Source of the DNA: Bacteriovoracaceae bacterium
GTDB taxonomy: Bacteria; Bdellovibrionota; Bacteriovoracia; Bacteriovoracales; Bacteriovoracaceae
Length of the DNA stretch: 49,430 nucleotides
Assembly (NCBI GenBank): GCA_016786485.1
Contig: JAEUWD010000038.1
Coordinates: forward strand, 1-49,430
Direction: 5' to 3'
Every line of letters begins with the position of its first letter. Position 1 is the stretch's first letter. The position numbers and the translations under genes were made by a program. This document shows, piece after piece, positions 13,106-32,948 of this stretch. The notes beneath the pieces are model-generated. The model made no database searches and was not told the origin of the DNA. It saw nothing but the letters and a program-made list of their open reading frames with translations.

Positions 13106-14806
13106 ATGTCGCCATTGTCACTCACTTACCCTGAAGAACGAGCATTTGATTCAAGTATCCCCTCAGAGAATTGGTTTTTTTACTGGAAAACCTCACCAAC
13201 TTTGTGGGAAGCCAAGCTGAATTATTTTCCTGACAATTTCCCGATTTTTATCCCAGTTTTCTGGGGTTTACATGCTCAAGCCAATGGTTCTTATGAGTTT
13301 ACCGATCATACGCCTGAAACCAATTTATTAAAACTTTCTCAGTTAGCTAAAAGCTTGAATAAGAATTTGGTCTTCTTGGTACCTTTAGGTCCAATGCCTT
13401 TCCTCGTGAATGGCGGTTTACCGTCGTTTCTCGCCCGAAAACTGGCACATTTTGAGAATGGTTTGGTCATGAGCGTGATCAATTTCGAAAGAAAAATTAA
13501 TAAGATTTACTCATACCTCGAGCGTGATGTGCTGCTTGAGTACCAACGTTTTACTCGAAGTTTTGGCGAGTTTTTAAAGCACCATGAGCTTAACTCTGAT
13601 GTTTATGGTTTTGAGTCAGGCAAAATTCTAAGTAATGGATTATTTAAATCTTACTTGGAAGATTATTCACCTTCATTTGTAAAATATTACAATTTCTATA
13701 AGCAAAAAAATGCGGAAGTTAAGACGACTGAGAACGAATTCCGCAACATGATTAATAATATGTACGTGGCAACTGCCCGAGACAATATTGCGAAAAACTG
13801 GGTCGGAGAACTGAAGGTTTCTTTCCTTGGTGGTTCGGTGGAAGATTTGTTTTTACGAAGTGAGGACAACGAAGATATCGAAAATTATTTCACTGAGCTT
13901 TTTGATAGTTATACCAATCTTGTTATTCCAAGTTCTTTGTTATTACCTCCAAGTGATACCAAAAAAGTGGTTGATCGCTGTATCAACGAAATGACTAATC
14001 GAAGGTACCTGATGGAGTGTATGCACAAGGCAAGTTATCAAGAAGAAAACTTCGAATTAACACCGTTGAATTTCTTTAATGTTATTCACGATAATTCAAA
14101 TGGTTTCTTAGAGCAAAGTGGCTTGATGGCCTACTTAGAATCAAACTTTAAGTGGTGTTATAACTTTACCAATATCAATATGCTAGAAAATCAAAATGAC
14201 TTTCATGAGAGAATCACTTTGATCAATGGTCAGGCGATTGATGCGACTAATTTCACTAAGTTAATTAATTATTTCTTGGCCGGAAATAAAATTATTCTCG
14301 ATACTCAGTATTTAGATGAAAACCTTTTAAAGAAACTTGAATACTTCGCGCTTGAAAATAATCTTGAAACACAAAATATTCTTCTGCATACCAAGCTAAC
14401 TTATTACAAGCTTCAAGCAGGCGAGATAATTCTTTATAATTCAGAGTCACTCAAGGCAAAAAATCATTCAACTCAGAATGAGTTTTGGAAAAAAATGATC
14501 AATTATTTTGATCTTCACCATCTCGATATCCAAGAAGATAATAAAAACCCTTTGGTTTATTTCTGGCGTCGTCGTGATGTGACTAATCGTGAGTTGAACT
14601 TCCAAGAAATTCGTCGCGTTTCTATTTTTAATAATTCGCACGTAAAAAAATCATGTGTGCTTAATTTTCCTGATAACTTTGCTGTACAAAAAATCTTAGA
14701 TGAAACAGGTGTGAAGCTTCAGCACGAAGGGAAAAATATGAAGATTGAATTTAAACCTTACGCTAAAGTGGCGATCGAATTTGGATTTTATAATGAAAGA
14801 AACTAA
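13106..14806 (+). CDS. Unknown protein, resembling a clan-A glycoside hydrolase barrel
   Basis: 566 residues without signal peptide or membrane segment. The first 120 residues follow the beginning of GH35/GH42-type beta-galactosidases: Trp-rich opening, FPIFIPVFWGLHA (45-57), GSYEFTDHT (61-69), then LVFLVPLGPMPFLVNGGLP (88-106), which recalls the R-x-GPY...GGLP-x-WL stretch of GH35. I could not place both catalytic glutamates, so activity is doubtful; later parts are unrecognised. It has its own 167-base upstream gap shared with the divergent dehydrogenase operon. The ribosome site is unclear: AAGG is immediately next to the ATG. The 137-residue gene behind it overlaps by 14 bases and is likely a partner. 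Function unknown. Confidence 0.6.
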   Translation: MSPLSLTYPEERAFDSSIPSENWFFYWKTSPTLWEAKLNYFPDNFPIFIPVFWGLHAQANGSYEFTDHTPETNLLKLSQLAKSLNKNLVFLVPLGPMPFLVNGGLPSFLARKLAHFENGLVMSVINFERKINKIYSYLERDVLLEYQRFTRSFGEFLKHHELNSDVYGFESGKILSNGLFKSYLEDYSPSFVKYYNFYKQKNAEVKTTENEFRNMINNMYVATARDNIAKNWVGELKVSFLGGSVEDLFLRSEDNEDIENYFTELFDSYTNLVIPSSLLLPPSDTKKVVDRCINEMTNRRYLMECMHKASYQEENFELTPLNFFNVIHDNSNGFLEQSGLMAYLESNFKWCYNFTNINMLENQNDFHERITLINGQAIDATNFTKLINYFLAGNKIILDTQYLDENLLKKLEYFALENNLETQNILLHTKLTYYKLQAGEIILYNSESLKAKNHSTQNEFWKKMINYFDLHHLDIQEDNKNPLVYFWRRRDVTNRELNFQEIRRVSIFNNSHVKKSCVLNFPDNFAVQKILDETGVKLQHEGKNMKIEFKPYAKVAIEFGFYNERN

Positions 14807-15206
14807 TTTATTAAAGATTATTTATTCTTATCGCGTTTTTGTGGACCAAGATGGACTTGAGCGACCTATTTTTGAAGTGGTGAGTATTCTCGATCATAAA
14901 GGGCAGACCCTGACAGAGCAAATTCAGTACAACTTACTTGAGCAAAGTTCGTCAGAACGTCGTACTTTTAAATTTGAAGACATCGAGCTTTTAAAATCTT
15001 ATTTCATTGATAATGCGGAGACTTTGAAAGTTTCAAAAATATATTTCTTAAATATTTTTGATCTGAACTATGCTCTAGAAAATTCCAGCGATATTTCTGA
15101 CCTGGCAAAATATTGGCAACAGTATTCTAGCGTTTGGGAAAAACAAAACTACATCAGCAAAGATAAATTTTCATTAAAAGATTTTTTCAGCGGACCGACC
15201 GCTTAG
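14793..15206 (+). CDS. Small conserved-looking partner protein, unknown
   Basis: 137 residues starting MKETNLLKIIYSYRVFVD. I prefer the ATG at 14793 to one 48 bases upstream because the shorter form overlaps the 566-residue gene by only 14 bases and begins with a natural beta strand. It is acidic, with a predicted alternation of strands and helices and no known motif. The overlap suggests translational coupling and therefore a shared role with the glycosidase-fold protein. The stop overlaps that of the convergent secreted-protein gene by the four bases TTAG. Function unknown. Confidence 0.6.
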   Translation: MKETNLLKIIYSYRVFVDQDGLERPIFEVVSILDHKGQTLTEQIQYNLLEQSSSERRTFKFEDIELLKSYFIDNAETLKVSKIYFLNIFDLNYALENSSDISDLAKYWQQYSSVWEKQNYISKDKFSLKDFFSGPTA

Positions 15207-23481: not shown

Positions 23482-23532
23482 TTAAAATTGATATATCTTT
23501 ATCTAAACTTTTTTGAAAATTGAGGAATGTGT

Positions 23533-24267
23533 ATGAGTGGAACGGAAATGAATTTATTGGTGATTATTTGGGAATCGGGCTTTGTCGTAAAAATGGTACT
23601 CTTGCTTTTAGTTGCGATGTCGGTCTTTTCTTGGACGATCATTATTCAAAAAAATAAAGTGCTTAAAGCGGTTGAAGCTGACGATTTGAAATTTGCTGAA
23701 AAGTTTTCGAGCAACTTAGGTTTAGTTGAAATCTATCATGTGACGAAAGACTACCCAGAATCAACGATGAGCCAAATGTATCAAACGGGTTTTGAAGAAT
23801 TACAAAAAATTACGAAAAAAATTGGCACTTCAAAATCGGGTATCACGCTGGCAGATTATTTTTCTAAATATGGCCTTGAGCCACTTGAGCGTGCCCTTAA
23901 AAAAGGTGCTGTTCTTTCCAATCAAAAATTAAATAAACTAATCACGATGTTAGCGACCATTGGAACTTTGGCACCGTTTGTTGGATTATTTGGAACAGTT
24001 TGGGGGATTATTAATTCCTTCACCGGTTTAGCCTCAGGCGGCGGTTCCATTGAATCAGTTGCACCTGGTATCGCTGAGGCGCTAGTTGCGACAGCGATCG
24101 GCTTAGCGGCAGCCATTCCAGCTGTTTGGTTCTTCAATATTTTTAATAACCGTATTGGAAAAATTAATTCTCAGATGGAAGCTTTTGCTGAAGATTATTT
24201 GAACCTTATTGCTCGTTCCATTTTGATTTCGAAAGAGTCGATCCCTGGAGACAATAATGGGGTTTAG
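23533..24267 (+). CDS. tolQ: TolQ proton-channel subunit (MotA/TolQ/ExbB family)
   Basis: 244 residues from the ATG at 23533; the ATG two codons earlier is too close to GAGG (23522-23525). Three membrane helices are visible (about 15-37, one around IGTLAPFVGLFGTVWGIINSF and one around EALVATAIGLAAAIPAVWFFN), the last two being the conserved channel helices of the family. With TolR it uses the proton gradient to energise TolA-type periplasmic proteins during envelope constriction. The gene overlaps tolR by 11 bases. Confidence 0.92.
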   Translation: MSGTEMNLLVIIWESGFVVKMVLLLLVAMSVFSWTIIIQKNKVLKAVEADDLKFAEKFSSNLGLVEIYHVTKDYPESTMSQMYQTGFEELQKITKKIGTSKSGITLADYFSKYGLEPLERALKKGAVLSNQKLNKLITMLATIGTLAPFVGLFGTVWGIINSFTGLASGGGSIESVAPGIAEALVATAIGLAAAIPAVWFFNIFNNRIGKINSQMEAFAEDYLNLIARSILISKESIPGDNNGV

Positions 24268-24670
24268 TTTAAACAATAAAAAAGGCGCTCCGATTTCAGA
24301 AATTAACGTAACTCCGTTAGTTGACGTTATGCTGGTGCTTTTAGTTATTTTTATGATTAGTGCACCGTTGATGTTCAGCGGGATTAATTTAGATCTACCG
24401 AAGACAAAAAAAGTGAATACATTAAAAATCACGAACACTCAGGTGGTGCTTTCTTTTTCACCGGGATTAGAACTTTATCTTGGTGACCAAAAAGTTCTGC
24501 GAGAGGAATTAATTCCAGAAATTAAGGCCTTATTTAAAGAACATAATACTCAAGTCGTCTACCTTCGGGCCGATTATGAAATTCAATATGGTCACGTCGC
24601 GAAGTTGATGGCCTTTTTGAAACATGGTGGTATTTCACAAATCGCCTTGGTGACTGAGAACGAAAAATAA
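24257..24670 (+). CDS. tolR: TolR/ExbD stator protein
   Basis: 137 residues: short cytoplasmic start, one membrane helix, periplasmic domain. The proton-carrying aspartate is Asp23 in INVTPLVDVML, the universal motif of the family. It pairs with TolQ. The start lies within the end of tolQ and its stop overlaps the next start as TAATG, so the set is translationally coupled. ExbD and TolR are hard to tell apart by sequence; the following tolB favours TolR. Confidence 0.92.
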   Translation: MGFSLNNKKGAPISEINVTPLVDVMLVLLVIFMISAPLMFSGINLDLPKTKKVNTLKITNTQVVLSFSPGLELYLGDQKVLREELIPEIKALFKEHNTQVVYLRADYEIQYGHVAKLMAFLKHGGISQIALVTENEK

Positions 24671-25497
24671 TGAAGCAGAAATACTTCGATAATCTATTAA
24701 TAGATCTCGATGCAGCAGGACTCAAGAAGCCTCTGATTTATTCTCTTTTATTGCACTTAGTTTTCCCGCTTATCATTTATCTGATAGTAAGTCTTAATAT
24801 TAAGTGGGAGCCTACTTTTATTAAAAATGTTGTGACCATTCAAAGTGCTGTGCGAGTGGATGTGGTGGATATGCCAAAATATACTATCCAGGAACTTAAG
24901 GCGATGAAGTTGCCACCGATCGCAACTACTGTCACGTCGCCACCTCCAGCAAAATCGGTGAATGAAAAAACGATCAATCCCGAAGTCCAAGATGAATTAA
25001 CCTTTAAAGAAAAAGGTAAAAAAAGTTTAAACGAAATTCTTAAAAATCTAAGCAAAAAAGATATTAAGCTGGATAATAAAAAAGCTGCTGAGAAAAAAGT
25101 TGATGGCGATGGAAAAAACACCCTAAGTAAAAATGAATTAAAGCAATTGATCTTGGAAGGTAATAAATTAAGTAAAGGCTCGGCCCTCGTAGGTGATAGT
25201 AGTGAAGTGTCGATGGCGGAATTTGAGAGTTATGCTAACACTCTGCCGGACCTCGTGAAGCGTTATTGGAAACTTCCTAGTTATTTGATGGATGCTAATT
25301 TAAAGTGTAGAATTAGGGTCTATATTTCTTCGAAAGGTAAATTAATTAAAGCAATTGTTTATGAGTCGAGTGGAGTGGTTGAGTATGATCAAAAAGCCGT
25401 TAGTGCCGTTGAGCAAGTTCAGTCTTTTCCGATTCCACCTAATTCAGTTATCCATCGCCTTTCGTCTGGCGATGTTATTTTAGGATTCCCATTATGA
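24670..25497 (+). CDS. TolA/TonB-like energy transducer
   Basis: 275 residues: one N-terminal membrane helix (about 18-44), a proline- and lysine-rich periplasmic stretch (about 85-155) and a C-terminal TonB-fold domain (about 190-275) with YWKLPSYL, RVYISSKGKLIKAIVYESSG and AVSAVEQVQSFPIPP. It would couple TolQR to the outer membrane partner. The position between tolR and tolB makes it the TolA equivalent although the C-terminal domain reads like TonB. ATGA overlap with tolB. Confidence 0.88.
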   Translation: MKQKYFDNLLIDLDAAGLKKPLIYSLLLHLVFPLIIYLIVSLNIKWEPTFIKNVVTIQSAVRVDVVDMPKYTIQELKAMKLPPIATTVTSPPPAKSVNEKTINPEVQDELTFKEKGKKSLNEILKNLSKKDIKLDNKKAAEKKVDGDGKNTLSKNELKQLILEGNKLSKGSALVGDSSEVSMAEFESYANTLPDLVKRYWKLPSYLMDANLKCRIRVYISSKGKLIKAIVYESSGVVEYDQKAVSAVEQVQSFPIPPNSVIHRLSSGDVILGFPL

Positions 25498-26834
25498 AAT
25501 TTTTTATCCTCTGCAGTTTTCTTTTATCCCTCAATCTTTTCGCTCAAGGCGATTTAACCATCGTCGCCGTTGGGGATGCTGAACAAGAAAAACAAGCTTT
25601 CGTGGTGGCAGACCCAGAATACATCGGAAGTCTTAAAGGTGAACAAAAAGCACTGGCGATTGAAATCACCGAATTAATTCGTAATGACTTTTCTTTCTAT
25701 CGTCACGTCTTTCAAGTTTTTGATTATGATAAATCTTTTGGTGATCCTTATCAGTCCGCTAATTATGCCAAGTGGAAAGGCAAAAATTATAGTTACGTCG
25801 TTGGTACACAAGTAACAGCGAACGGTTCAAATATTACTTATTCGATCAAAGCTTTCAATGTGCTTAAAGGTGAAGAGTTATATTCTCAATCAGTTTTAAT
25901 TTCGGCCCGCGATGTTCGTTCCGAAGGACATAAACTGGCCAATGGCATTTACCACGCCATTCTTGGTAAAGAATCGATCTTCACAACGAAGATTTATTTC
26001 GTGTCAGACCTTCCAACTGTTGATCGTGATAAGCAGATGATTAAAGAACTTTATATGATGGACTTTGATGGCAGAAATGTTGAACGTCTCACTTTCCACC
26101 AGGGTTATGTTATTTCGCCAGCAGTGTCGCCTGACCAATCTCGTGTCGTTTATAGTTATGTGCCAAATACCAAAATTAAAGCTAAGCGAAACGTAAACTT
26201 GTTTGAAATGGATTTGACGACGAGACGTTCGAAACTTATTTCCGAAAAACCAGGTCTTAACTCTGGAGCGACCTTCTCGTCTGATGGTAAGAGAATTTTG
26301 TTAACACTTTCAATGGGTGAGAACTCAGATATCTATGAAATGGACCTGTCCAACGGCGCTTTAAGAAGAATTACCACACATTATTCAGATGATGTGGACC
26401 CTTCGTTAAATCAAGCAGGTGACTTAATGAGTTTCCTTTCAGGTCGTTCGGGTCGTGCCATGATTTACACCATGGATCCTACTGCGACCGAGAAAAACGT
26501 TAAGCGTATTAGTTTTGTGGGACGCTTTAATGCGACTCCGCGCTTTTCACCAGACGGTAAAGAGATTGTCTTTAGTTCGTGGGTCGATAATCGCTTTGAT
26601 ATCTATAAGATAGGTAGTAACGGTCAGGACCTTGTAAGAATGACAAAAAACTTCGGTTCTAATGAGGAGCCAGGCTTTTCTAAGGACGGAGAGTTTATCA
26701 TTTTTACATCCCAACGGGTTCTTTCGGCCAAAAAGGCCATCCAAAACGTCTACATTATGAACAAAGAAGGCGAGATTTTAGGTCAATTGACCCGAGATTT
26801 TGGAAATTGTTCATCTCCAAGATGGACTAACTAG
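25494..26834 (+). CDS. tolB: Tol-Pal system protein TolB
   Basis: 446 residues with a signal peptide (MKFFILCSFLLSLNLFAQ), an N-terminal alpha/beta domain and a C-terminal beta-propeller built of PD40-type repeats: ISPAVSPDQSRVVYS, GATFSSDGKRILLT, ATPRFSPDGKEIVFSS and EEPGFSKDGEFIIFTS. Periplasmic partner of the TolA-like protein and Pal. It is the last gene of the operon; no pal or cpoB follows, which is unusual, and the next gene is a cytoplasmic regulator after a 140-base gap. Confidence 0.94.
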   Translation: MKFFILCSFLLSLNLFAQGDLTIVAVGDAEQEKQAFVVADPEYIGSLKGEQKALAIEITELIRNDFSFYRHVFQVFDYDKSFGDPYQSANYAKWKGKNYSYVVGTQVTANGSNITYSIKAFNVLKGEELYSQSVLISARDVRSEGHKLANGIYHAILGKESIFTTKIYFVSDLPTVDRDKQMIKELYMMDFDGRNVERLTFHQGYVISPAVSPDQSRVVYSYVPNTKIKAKRNVNLFEMDLTTRRSKLISEKPGLNSGATFSSDGKRILLTLSMGENSDIYEMDLSNGALRRITTHYSDDVDPSLNQAGDLMSFLSGRSGRAMIYTMDPTATEKNVKRISFVGRFNATPRFSPDGKEIVFSSWVDNRFDIYKIGSNGQDLVRMTKNFGSNEEPGFSKDGEFIIFTSQRVLSAKKAIQNVYIMNKEGEILGQLTRDFGNCSSPRWTN

Positions 26835-30332: not shown

Positions 30333-30364
30333 GGGCGTTGTGCCCTTACAACCATGAAGGTTGT
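30333..30364 (+). promoter_or_regulatory. Two hairpins at the start of the ftsEX leader
   Basis: GGGC and GCCC (30333-30336, 30342-30345) around GTTGT, then ACAACC and GGTTGT (30348-30353, 30359-30364) around ATGAA. They stand between the predicted transcript start and the ribosome site GGAG at 30369-30372. An ATG in the second loop is in frame with ftsE. Confidence 0.45.
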
Positions 30365-30380
30365 TAGCGGAGAAAGTCAT

Positions 30381-31076
30381 ATGGAAATGACACAGATAGA
30401 TTTACGAAGTAAAAATCATCCCCTGAAAAGTTACCAGTACTATCTGGACAATGTTTCAGTTCAATTTGGTAAGACTGTCGCACTTAAAAATCTGAAATTT
30501 ATTGTGAATACCGGAGAAGTTCTTTTTCTTACCGGTGCTTCAGGTGCAGGAAAAACCACACTATTACGTTTACTCGCGGGTGAAATTGCTCCCACCTCAG
30601 GTGAATTAAAAACTATGCCAGCGGCAGATAATTTTGTCGGACGTGTGTTTCAAGATTTGCGCCTAGTTAGTAATTTGACTTGCGAAGAAAATCTTTATTT
30701 TTCATTTGATAATAAAATCTACAAAAGCGTAAAACAATTTCGAGATGAAATGGATATGATTGCTAAGGCTCTTGGCGTTTATGATCGTCTCAATACTAAG
30801 ATTGTTGATTGTAACGGCGGACTTAAGCAGAAAGTCGCCATGATGAGAGCCCTCCTTGCTCATCCAACGGTCTTATTAGCAGACGAGCCAACGAGTGCTT
30901 TGGATAAAACCAATGCTGCAAAACTTTTTGATGTCCTAAGTTTTTATAATTCAAAAAAATCCATGACAGTTGTTTGGGCCTCTCACAATCGTGAACTGGT
31001 AAAACAATTTCCGGGAAAAATTCTTAATTTAGAAGCCGGACGAATGGTATATGCAGGGAACTCATGTTTTATTTAA
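30381..31076 (+). CDS. ftsE: FtsE-like ABC transporter ATPase
   Basis: 231 residues from the ATG at 30381, with GGAG 8 bases upstream; an ATG at 30354 lies within a hairpin and has no ribosome site. Walker A is GASGAGKT (52-59), Q-loop Gln91, Walker B LLADEP (165-170) with Glu169 and switch His202. The signature reads CNGGLKQK (144-151) in place of LSGGQQQR, an altered form still keeping the two glycines. FtsEX does not transport; it drives a periplasmic activator of cell wall amidases in division. It overlaps ftsX by 13 bases, and an EnvC-like gene follows, which supports the call. Confidence 0.9.
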   Translation: MEMTQIDLRSKNHPLKSYQYYLDNVSVQFGKTVALKNLKFIVNTGEVLFLTGASGAGKTTLLRLLAGEIAPTSGELKTMPAADNFVGRVFQDLRLVSNLTCEENLYFSFDNKIYKSVKQFRDEMDMIAKALGVYDRLNTKIVDCNGGLKQKVAMMRALLAHPTVLLADEPTSALDKTNAAKLFDVLSFYNSKKSMTVVWASHNRELVKQFPGKILNLEAGRMVYAGNSCFI

Positions 31077-31867
31077 GTCGTTATTTTAAATTTATTATCA
31101 ACTCTGGTTTAAACGGTGTGCAGTTTATTTTTGTCCTCGCACTCGCACTCGTACTGCTCCACAGTTCACCTTGGATTGAAAAGCAACTCAAGTCGACTTT
31201 GGAATCAACTAAAGGTAATCCGTATTTCAATATGCTGGTGGATGCTGACGTTAACCCAGATGAGTTCCGCGTGAAACTGAATAAGCTTCCAGAAATTCTG
31301 AACGTCTATCTTTCAGAAAAAGCAGCTTTAGATAAAAATATTAACCAAAAGCTAGGAGAGTTGTCGCTCGATATTCCGGCATCACTTACTGAAGTGAATA
31401 TGTACGGGTTGAAAGTTGAGTTATCGAATAAGGTGACTCCGGCGGTTTTCGAATTGATTAAAGAATATATTTATAAACTCGTAGGAAAAGAAAAAGTTGT
31501 TTTCACTGGCATACGGAATCAATCAACAGTAAAAAATCATGTGATTGATTATTTAATCAATTATTTTATGTATGCTTTCTCGGCAGCTGTTTATTTCACC
31601 ATCGTGTTGTCGTTCATGTTTACGCAAAAGAAAATTAAATACCAAGCTTATTTGGTGGAAAGTTTTCAAAGAAAAGAAAATGTATTTTTGAAAACTCAAA
31701 TTGCCGGAGCCATCACACTTGGCTTTCTAAGCACCATTCTTCACGGTTATGTGAAAGAATATTTTGATGTGAAAATCCTAGCTTTTGCTTGGGCCGTGAT
31801 TGCAGTCTTTTGTGTCACGCTAATGTTTTTGGCGAACGTACTAAATAAAAATGTGCATGAAGTTTAG
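31064..31867 (+). CDS. ftsX: FtsX-like division permease
   Basis: 267 residues with four membrane segments in the FtsX order: one N-terminal (about 17-34), an external domain of about 130 residues (PYFNMLVDADVNPDEF and following), then three near the C-terminus (SAAVYFTIVLSFMF, AITLGFLSTILHGY, FAWAVIAVFCVTLMF). It connects FtsE in the cytoplasm to the periplasmic EnvC-like protein. Its start overlaps ftsE, and its stop lies 8 bases inside the next gene. Confidence 0.88.
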   Translation: MFYLSRYFKFIINSGLNGVQFIFVLALALVLLHSSPWIEKQLKSTLESTKGNPYFNMLVDADVNPDEFRVKLNKLPEILNVYLSEKAALDKNINQKLGELSLDIPASLTEVNMYGLKVELSNKVTPAVFELIKEYIYKLVGKEKVVFTGIRNQSTVKNHVIDYLINYFMYAFSAAVYFTIVLSFMFTQKKIKYQAYLVESFQRKENVFLKTQIAGAITLGFLSTILHGYVKEYFDVKILAFAWAVIAVFCVTLMFLANVLNKNVHEV

Positions 31868-32948
31868 CAAACATATTTTGATTGTGGTTCAGTCTCTCTT
31901 TATCACAGGTGCTTTCGCCGCCACATCATCCTCTTTGCCTGAACTTCGCAAGCAAGAACGTTCTATTGAAAAAATCAAAAGAAAAATCGATGAGAAAAAT
32001 GCGGAGCTGATAAAAGTTAATGCTGAACTAGCAACGATTGAAAAAAATCTAGGAAAAACGAATACGGACTATATCGAGAAAGTAAAACAAATCGAAGCGC
32101 TAGAAGCGCAAATCACACAAACTCGCCAGGACTTTGAAACCGCACGTATCACCATGAATAACGAGTATAAAAAAAGTAAAATTCTTTTGAATCAATATTT
32201 AATCAACGAAGTGGAAGTGGAAAGCGTTGACGAACTATATGCCGCCAAAGTTTATAAAAAACTGCTAAACGATAATATCGCCAATCTTAAGGCGCAGATG
32301 GAAAACATCGAACAGATGGAAGCCAACCTTGAAAAAACTAACGCTGAACTCGCCGACCTGAAGGAACAAGAAGTTTATTTGTATAAGCTTATTATGGAGC
32401 TGGAAGAAGATAAAAAAGTACGGGCCAATAAATATCTGGAAGCCGTTGCTAAAAAAGAAAGTTACGAAGAAAAATTATTGGATAAAAAAAGTCAGATCAA
32501 AAAATCAGTAGCGGTCATCGAAGCAACGGATGTTACTGAAGAAGCACCGGTTAGTGTAAGTGCCGAAGACAGCATTTATAAATTCCAATTGCCGATTAGA
32601 GTCTTTGAGAAGTTTAAAGTCGAGAAAAAAGGTATTACCTTAACTTATGCTCAACCTTCCGATATTCGCGCCACAGGGAAGGGAAAAATTGTCTATAAAG
32701 GTGTTTTATCTAATTATGGTAATCTAGTTATCATAGAGCATGTTAACGAACTAAGAACAATTATTCTTGGTGATTTTAAACCGACAGTTGAGCAGGATCA
32801 GATGGTTGAGATGGATGATAAAATCGGTGAAGCGACAATGGTTCAAAATACTGTGAAAACAGTTTATTTTGAAGTTCGCAAAAGCAACAAGGCCCAACCA
32901 ACCACTCAGTGGCTTGATCAGAAAAGTTTAGCTTTATTAGGAAATTAA
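31857..32948 (+). CDS. EnvC-like murein hydrolase activator
   Basis: 363 residues from the ATG at 31857 (an ATG two codons earlier is possible). Signal peptide MKFSKHILIVVQSLFITGAFA, then a long coiled coil (about 30-215, rich in Glu, Lys, Leu heptads) and a C-terminal LytM-like domain (about 245-350: GKGKIVYKGVLSNYGNLVIIEH). The HxxxD and HxH zinc motifs of M23 peptidases are missing, FEVR standing at the HLH position, as in EnvC. It should activate amidases when pulled on by FtsEX. It overlaps ftsX by 11 bases and precedes ctpA by one base. Confidence 0.88.
   Translation: MKFSKHILIVVQSLFITGAFAATSSSLPELRKQERSIEKIKRKIDEKNAELIKVNAELATIEKNLGKTNTDYIEKVKQIEALEAQITQTRQDFETARITMNNEYKKSKILLNQYLINEVEVESVDELYAAKVYKKLLNDNIANLKAQMENIEQMEANLEKTNAELADLKEQEVYLYKLIMELEEDKKVRANKYLEAVAKKESYEEKLLDKKSQIKKSVAVIEATDVTEEAPVSVSAEDSIYKFQLPIRVFEKFKVEKKGITLTYAQPSDIRATGKGKIVYKGVLSNYGNLVIIEHVNELRTIILGDFKPTVEQDQMVEMDDKIGEATMVQNTVKTVYFEVRKSNKAQPTTQWLDQKSLALLGN

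What the first reader, a model, noticed from the sequence alone, without database searches (positions are those of the whole stretch)
13106..15206. Cytoplasmic glycosidase-fold protein with a coupled small partner
The first 120 residues follow the GH35/GH42 barrel, including GPMPFLVNGGLPSFL, but catalytic glutamates are not evident and no signal peptide exists. The gene behind it overlaps and is novel. It could be a carbohydrate-binding or remodelling protein for an intracellular or surface polymer.
Basis: inference. Interest (0 to 1): 0.55.

Follow-up and report, generated by a model that had tools for sequence, protein, structure and literature searches.

The report
Disarmed sugar-cutting enzyme with partner
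Bacteria related to the predator Bacteriovorax carry a cytoplasmic protein shaped like a sugar-cutting enzyme that has probably lost its cutting residues, paired with a small partner that often ends in a membrane-anchor-like tail, which suggests an undescribed core scaffold or sensor at the inner membrane.

Summary
Window 13106-14806 encodes a 566-aa protein without a signal peptide. Its AlphaFold2 model (pLDDT 88.6) matches GH35 glucosaminidase GlmA, GH35 transferase IaSGT and GH42 enzymes over residues 19-561. The beta4 catalytic Glu is not conserved (a Glu occurs in that strand in 28 of 101 homologues; the window has one); the presumed beta7 position is Glu in 39 of 101 and Asn in the window. 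The gene is near-universal in one family, by record titles Bacteriovoracaceae (123 of 129 genomes; 0 of 239 sampled others), and is followed by a coupled ~130-aa partner of unmatched fold in 75 of 75 named loci with a complete gene. The partner mostly ends in a basic-aromatic tail (74 of 86) like that of E. coli MinD; the window's own tail does not fit. A sister family has a shorter homologue in an LpxH-linked operon with a different partner. Best reading: a non-hydrolytic GlmA-fold scaffold or sugar sensor held at the inner membrane by its adaptor. Fold, loss of a conserved beta4 Glu and pairing rest on computation; complex, membrane binding and ligand are inferred. I found no description in the papers searched.

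The parts
13106..14806 (+). GH35/GlmA-like probable pseudo-glycosidase gene, 566 aa
   Evidence: homologues; fold
13160..14185 (+). (beta/alpha) barrel domain, residues ~19-360 (boundary approximate)
   Evidence: model secondary structure; e.g. GH35 8fa5_A over residues 20-303, Z 12.1, rmsd 3.5, 206 aligned
13613..13615 (+). residue 170 in barrel strand beta4, where the GH-A acid/base Glu is expected: Glu here, not conserved in the family
   Evidence: Glu in 7 of 30 and 28 of 101; strand
14078..14080 (+). residue 325 in beta7, the presumed nucleophile place: Asn here
   Evidence: Glu in 16 of 30 and 39 of 101; placement by strand order, indels nearby
14213..14506 (+). alpha/beta domain, residues ~370-467, in the place of the GlmA dimerisation domain
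   Evidence: full-length structural matches span it
14555..14788 (+). C-terminal beta domain, residues ~484-561
14793..15206 (+). coupled small partner gene, 137 aa, ATG start inside the end of the first gene
   Evidence: homologues; model pLDDT 84.7
15144..15203 (+). linker and C-terminal tail of the partner (residues ~118-137); MinD-like tail in most homologues, degenerate here
   Evidence: pLDDT 55-58 over residues 121-137; tails; regex test

Best explanation
A two-gene operon encodes a cytoplasmic complex. The large protein is a GH35/GlmA-related three-domain protein (barrel, alpha/beta domain, beta domain) that probably no longer hydrolyses by the clan GH-A mechanism and now serves as a scaffold or sugar-ligand sensor. 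The small protein is its dedicated partner: its folded domain binds the large protein (inferred from the constant pairing and the overlapping or closely spaced genes), and a flexible linker ends in a short basic-aromatic tail that in most homologues resembles the MinD membrane-targeting tail and would hold the complex on the inner face of the inner membrane. If the large protein is oligomeric as GlmA is, several weak tails would act together. Shown by computation: fold, non-conservation of the beta4 Glu, core status, pairing, tail conservation. Inferred: physical complex, membrane binding, oligomer. Not known: the ligand; because a sister lineage places its homologue directly behind an lpxH-like gene, a glucosamine lipid (lipid A precursor) is the best single guess.
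For: Model pLDDT 88.6, pTM 0.87; Foldseek 8oug E 1.6e-13 and 7vkw_A E 2.5e-12; VIA-align 6jow_A Z 13.3, rmsd 7.4, 451 aligned over residues 19-561, and 8fa5_A Z 12.1, rmsd 3.5, 206 aligned over 20-303. Beta4 segment 166-174 holds a Glu in 28 of 101 homologues and any acid in 40 of 101; in residues 1-360 the columns at least 85% acidic are 15, 21, 58, 64, 71, 139, 186 and one insertion column after 205, none within the beta4 or beta7 strand. Large gene in 123 of 129 family genomes; partner in 119 of 129, and two of its ten misses show a partner-like ORF by eye (L146, L147). Pairing in 75 of 75 named loci with a complete large ORF. Nearest conserved upstream gene divergent in 67 of 67 loci where one could be assessed. 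Tail regex: 74 of 86 distinct tails, 1 of 1151 control ORFs, 0.8 expected from shuffled tails; 0 of 856 tails of conserved neighbour families, and mean net charge of the last 14 residues +2.8 against +0.5. The E. coli MinD tail fits the same regex. Sister family: GH-like gene followed by a different adjacent partner in 14 of 14 loci, LpxH-like gene just upstream in 13 of 14, the 14th contig being cut there; homology to the window family by hhalign 94.4%, E 9.3e-8, 390 columns.
Against: Foldseek TM-scores are modest (0.38-0.45 by query for the GlmA and IaSGT rows, global rmsd 10-14) and sequence identity is 10-16%. The tail regex was written after seeing the tails, and the window's own tail (FSLKDFFSGPTA) is one of 12 that do not fit. 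Helical hydrophobic moment is no higher in the tails than in controls (0.51 in both; MinD itself 0.50), so amphipathicity is not shown. No complex could be modelled. A GlmA review (PMC6566704, passages) states that GlmA's catalytic residues could not be predicted from sequence, so loss of catalysis is not proven; invariant D186 lies in the loop after beta4, and 91 of 101 homologues have some acid in the ten residues around beta7. Alignments of the window family to two long GH35 proteins of relatives are weak (hhalign 17% and 18%). The LpxH-like gene of the window's own genome lies on another contig (C22).
Confidence: 0.45

Rival explanations
1. The large protein is an active cytoplasmic glycosidase or transglycosidase with an unusual catalytic set, for example invariant D186 or a beta7 acid with an activated donor that needs no acid catalyst; the partner is a subunit or regulator.
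For: D186 is Asp in 101 of 101; position 325 is Glu or Asp in 62 of 101. IaSGT shows that a GH35 protein without a signal peptide can be a transferase (PMC8861115, passages). GlmA's catalytic residues escaped sequence prediction (PMC6566704, passages).
Against: Position 325 is Lys in 15, Asn in 6, Tyr in 5 and His in 5 of 101 and Asn in the window; no conserved acid in the beta4 strand. In the sister family a position (272) is acidic in 13 of 13, but hhalign does not align it with 325, so it does not decide.
Confidence: 0.2
2. The two proteins form a soluble complex; the C-terminal tail is a docking peptide for the large protein or for a third protein, not a membrane anchor.
For: Tail conserved but short; hydrophobic moment not raised; in several homologues polar residues follow the aromatic core (e.g. 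GKFFNNNRKS).
Against: The basic-aromatic pattern fits E. coli MinD; a low-confidence linker precedes it.
Confidence: 0.3
3. A purely structural role without a ligand; conservation reflects assembly into a larger machine.
For: Invariant residues are spread over all three domains; a weak hhalign alignment to a relative's GH35 puts invariant P50 at a Tyr of the enzyme's beta1 motif (17% probability).
Against: Invariant W34, H56, D186, S188 and the 102-106 loop (N102 94 of 101, G104 101 of 101) lie in barrel segments that in GH35 are near the pocket (recalled and by alignment only; not mapped on coordinates).
Confidence: 0.15

Closest known systems
[quoted passage not shown] 8oug, 6jow, 5gsl, 5gsm)
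   Same: Best-ranked structural match over residues 19-561, tied with IaSGT and GH42 by Z; same order barrel - alpha/beta - beta domain (architecture from PMC6566704 passages).
   Different: 566 aa against 762-786; no conserved beta4 acid/base; presumed nucleophile not conserved; small partner.
Beta-1,2-glucosyltransferase IaSGT of Ignavibacterium album (GH35; 7vkw)
   Same: Among the top structural matches; no signal peptide (PMC8861115 passages).
   Different: IaSGT keeps E176 and E343 and its subsite -1 residues (same passages); it lies in a beta-1,2-glucan gene cluster (abstract).
GH42 beta-galactosidases (e.g. 1kwg)
   Same: Same three-domain order; Z 13.0, rmsd 6.0, 430 aligned.
   Different: No Pfam GH42 hit among 30 members at E <= 1; catalytic position on beta4 not conserved.
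MinD C-terminal membrane-targeting sequence
   Same: Short basic-aromatic C-terminal tail; the E. coli tail fits the same pattern.
   Different: The partner has no ATPase domain match; membrane binding untested; helical-moment test not informative.
Klotho-type inactive glycosidase relatives (recalled; of 3 papers listed for 'pseudoglycosidase', 2 are on FGF/Klotho)
   Same: A glycosidase fold reused after loss of catalytic residues.
   Different: Klotho is GH1-like, extracellular and animal (recalled); this is a GH35-like bacterial protein without a signal peptide.

Membership tests
GH35 (PF01301 / CAZy GH35) | GH-A (beta/alpha)8 barrel | tested here: met
   model and structural matches
GH35 (PF01301 / CAZy GH35) | Sequence score above the Pfam gathering cut-off for the window protein | tested here: not met
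   no PF01301 hit for the window protein at E <= 10; 12 of 30 homologues hit at E <= 1
GH35 (PF01301 / CAZy GH35) | Conserved acid/base Glu in beta4 | tested here: not met
   Glu anywhere in 166-174 in 28 of 101; no column from 140 to 185 is 85% acidic. The window itself has E170
GH35 (PF01301 / CAZy GH35) | Conserved nucleophile Glu in beta7 | tested here: inconclusive
   position 325 Glu in 39 of 101, Asn in the window; placement by strand order, and 91 of 101 have some acid within 321-330
GH35 GlmA/IaSGT subgroup | Subsite -1 Tyr (Y53 in TkGlmA) | tested here: inconclusive
   a weak hhalign alignment (17%) to a relative's GH35 puts P50 at a Tyr; P50 in 101 of 101; that this Tyr equals Y53 was not checked; residue list from PMC8861115 passages
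GH35 GlmA/IaSGT subgroup | Three-domain architecture: barrel, alpha/beta, beta domain | tested here: met
   full-length matches over residues 19-561; sister family has weak PF22369 GLMA_2nd hits in 3 of 13, best E 0.021
GH35 GlmA/IaSGT subgroup | Homodimer | not testable with these tools
   no complex prediction available
MinD-type membrane-targeting tail (partner) | Basic-hydrophobic C-terminal motif | tested here: met
   74 of 86 distinct tails of the family, 1 of 1151 control ORFs; not met by the window's own tail, one of the 12 misses; regex written after seeing the tails
MinD-type membrane-targeting tail (partner) | Amphipathic helix | tested here: inconclusive
   moment 0.51 in tails and in controls, 0.50 in MinD itself
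MinD-type membrane-targeting tail (partner) | Membrane binding | not testable with these tools
   needs experiment

The most novel reading that the evidence does not exclude
A pseudo-glucosaminidase that is a core part of envelope control in Bdellovibrionota: the dead GlmA-like barrel binds a glucosamine-based lipid (a lipid A precursor) at the cytoplasmic face of the inner membrane. One lineage tethers it with a MinD-like adaptor, another encodes it in an lpxH operon with an unrelated partner, so the same dead enzyme was kept while its partner was replaced.
Probability: 0.12. Interest if true: 0.8.

Novelty: new variant of a known kind. Interest (0 to 1): 0.52.

Why it matters
A single-copy, near-universal, family-specific gene pair is probably part of the basic physiology of a group that includes predatory bacteria, yet no Pfam or NCBIfam model names either protein. 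If the large protein is a pseudoenzyme, it is a bacterial cytoplasmic case of a glycosidase fold kept for a non-catalytic role across a whole family, and the lpxH link in the sister lineage gives a directly testable route into how these bacteria control their envelope.

Tried and rejected
Viral contigs: no relative found with the single protein as query, which reaches close relatives only. PDB by sequence: none at E <= 1 for the single protein; the profile gave beta-galactosidases 3d3a (E 0.15) and 6eon (E 0.2), residues 31-79 only. Pfam hits RPM2 and Eaf7 of the window protein are below cut-off and seen in 1 of 30 members; treated as chance. Partner: no Foldseek match at E <= 0.001; best VIA-align row Z 4.2, rmsd 4.2, 103 aligned; SUKH-type hits (E 0.04-0.08), each in 1 of 30 members, and 2m7b (E 0.011) not pursued. 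Relation of the sister family's partner to the window's: hhalign probability 0.2%, none seen. LpxH neighbours in other families: no GH-like ORF seen by eye in the 4 short loci read. Hydrophobic moment as a test of the tail: uninformative. MinD in the own genome: 8 matches to TIGR01968, none over its cut-off. Neighbouring genes of the window look like housekeeping genes in conserved order (names recognised from sequence, not scanned) and say little about function.

Literature: searches (listings with abstract starts seen); passages read of PMC6803595, PMC6566704, PMC8861115 and PMC8155659; no paper was read whole. No paper on this pair was seen in those listings, which hold open-licence papers only.

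Rows dropped or left out: one search kept 80 of 86 relatives; 75 of those 80 loci gave complete ORFs of the large gene. One search used 101 distinct large proteins, after removing ORFs of 520 aa or less and duplicates. A5 uses 13 of 14 sister-family loci (L170 left out, frame split); A6 uses 11 of 14 (L160, L168, L170 left out). Tails: 86 distinct of 75 + 30 collected. The 1151 controls are mechanical ORFs of 120 aa or more, not all proven genes. In one search the partner ORF was picked wrongly for L007 and L008 and corrected.

Full report
Observation. The window holds a 566-aa ORF at 13106-14806 and a 137-aa ORF at 14793-15206 on the + strand, overlapping by 14 nt. The window is one contig of a 2.98 Mb, 67-contig genome, in which the first protein has one match at E <= 10, itself. 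Of 80 named relatives kept, most titles read Bacteriovoracaceae, Halobacteriovoraceae, Bacteriovorax or Halobacteriovorax, others are broader (Oligoflexia, Bdellovibrionales, Proteobacteria), and one metagenome bin is labelled Bdellovibrio sp. (L115). That the own family (f1) is Bacteriovoracaceae is inferred from these titles.

Fold. With a 30-sequence alignment (A1) AlphaFold2 gives pLDDT 88.6 and pTM 0.87. Foldseek against the PDB returns 76 matches at E <= 0.001, led by archaeal GlmA (8oug, E 1.6e-13; 6jow_A, E 2.3e-13) and IaSGT (7vkw_A, E 2.5e-12), then GH42 and GH35 beta-galactosidases; TM-scores by query are modest (0.38-0.45 for the GlmA and IaSGT rows) with global rmsd of 10-14. VIA-align gives 6jow_A Z 13.3, rmsd 7.4, 451 aligned over residues 19-561; 1kwg Z 13.0, rmsd 6.0, 430 aligned; and for the barrel alone 8fa5_A Z 12.1, rmsd 3.5, 206 aligned over residues 20-303. 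Rows within 1 Z are tied, so GlmA, IaSGT and GH42 cannot be ranked. The glycosidase resemblance covers the whole protein.

Catalytic residues. A review places GlmA's acid/base Glu179 on beta4 and nucleophile Glu347 on beta7 (PMC6566704, passages); IaSGT keeps both (PMC8861115, passages). In the window family beta4 is residues 165-174 by strand order. Position 170 is Glu in 7 of 30, among them the window; a Glu occurs anywhere in 166-174 in 28 of 101 homologues and any acid in 40 of 101. Position 325 in beta7 is Glu in 16 of 30 and Glu 39, Asp 23, Lys 15, Asn 6 of 101; the window has Asn. In residues 1-360 the columns at least 85% acidic are 15, 21, 58, 64, 71, 139, 186 and one insertion column after 205. 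D186 is invariant and lies in the loop after beta4; a role in catalysis is not excluded. Alignments of the family to two long GH35 proteins of relatives that keep a DNE motif are weak (hhalign 17% and 18%); in the first, invariant P50 falls on a Tyr of the beta1 motif. The review warns that GlmA's catalytic residues could not be predicted from sequence. The protein is probably not a classical hydrolase, but this is not proven.

Distribution. A search of 59 genomes finds the gene in 36 of 37 of the own family (own genome included) and a weak hit in one of the other 22. The profile finds it in 123 of 129 family genomes and in 0 of 239 other sampled genomes of the phylum at E <= 0.001; the six family genomes without it are 56-92% complete. 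The partner profile finds 119 of 129 family genomes and three weak matches elsewhere; two of its ten misses (G106, G137) show a partner-like ORF by eye. In named loci the partner follows the large gene on the same strand in 75 of 75 loci with a complete large ORF; in one of them (L090) the large gene is split into two ORFs. The nearest conserved upstream gene is divergent in 67 of 67 assessable loci; the downstream one is co-directional in 37 and opposed in 28. The pair thus heads its own small transcription unit amid conserved synteny.

Partner. The model of the 137-aa protein has pLDDT 84.7 and pTM 0.74, with 55-58 over residues 121-137. No fold match is convincing and no Pfam family fits. 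Mean column identity is 23%, yet the C-terminus carries a recurring pattern such as RKKKGFLSRFF or KKGLFGKLF. A regular expression written after seeing these fits 74 of 86 distinct tails, 1 of 1151 control ORFs from the same loci and the window, and 0.8 expected in shuffled tails. The E. coli MinD tail fits it too. MinD's tail is an amphipathic helix whose single copy is too weak for lasting membrane binding (PMC6803595 and PMC8155659, passages). The window's own tail is one of 12 that do not fit, and hydrophobic moment does not separate tails from controls. By hydropathy, 2 of 30 large proteins and 0 of 30 partners have a 19-residue stretch above 1.6, so neither looks like an integral membrane protein as a family.

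Sister lineage. Weak GH35-like hits in family f3 led to 372-448-aa proteins that hit PF01301 (11 of 13 members, best 1.1e-9), PF02449 (4 of 13) and weakly PF22369 GLMA_2nd (3 of 13, best 0.021). They align with the window family over 390 columns, probability 94.4%, E 9.3e-8. The phylum scan finds them in 13 genomes of f3 and 1 of f23, besides 7 weak hits in the own family (how many f3 genomes lack it is not shown). In 14 of 14 loci the gene is followed by an adjacent, often overlapping partner gene, unrelated to the window's partner by hhalign, and in 13 of 14 it is preceded by an LpxH-like gene, the 14th contig being cut there. The LpxH assignment comes from two members scanned: NF003743 E 5.7e-40 and 2.9e-41, over that model's cut-off, but below the cut-off of TIGR01854; the other eleven were found by similarity to one of these. 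Aligned to a GH35 of a relative (hhalign 91.9%), the sister family has a gap where the enzyme has its DNE motif, and no column of its beta4 region is acidic in 12 or more of 13. Whether its constant acid at position 272 (13 of 13) corresponds to a nucleophile is open.

Reading. The most economical account is a GH35/GlmA-related protein kept as a scaffold or sensor with a dedicated partner, working at the cytoplasmic face of the inner membrane. The membrane step rests on tail similarity; the ligand (a glucosamine lipid) rests only on the LpxH neighbourhood in another family and on the GlmA likeness. The pair is not filed as a GH35 enzyme because the beta4 catalytic feature was tested and not met.

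Novelty. No description was found in the paper listings searched; that library lacks most subscription papers.

Noticed in passing
L142-L144, L160-L170 (families f3 and f23): Conserved order LpxH-like gene - short GH35-like gene - unrelated ~240-aa partner of no known family, in most loci beside genes that look like ispE, spoVG and rpsF (these three recognised from sequence, not scanned).
   Followed up: partly
L170:2935-4426: The GH-like gene of genome G302 is read in two ORFs (frameshift or assembly error); left as it is.
   Followed up: no
L090:9206-10939: The large gene is split into two ORFs in this Halobacteriovoraceae bin, with the partner intact behind it.
   Followed up: no
L121, L122: Two family members carry a long GH35 protein (open frames of 838 and 820 aa) with a DNE motif, one with a leader-like N-terminus, so active-looking GH35 proteins coexist with the probable pseudo-glycosidase in the family.
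   Followed up: partly
window 23527-26834 and 30354-32948: Clusters that look like TolQ/TolR/TonB/TolB and FtsE/FtsX/EnvC genes (recognised from sequence, not scanned); the genes from 23527 to 25497 recur in conserved order in many relatives.
   Followed up: no
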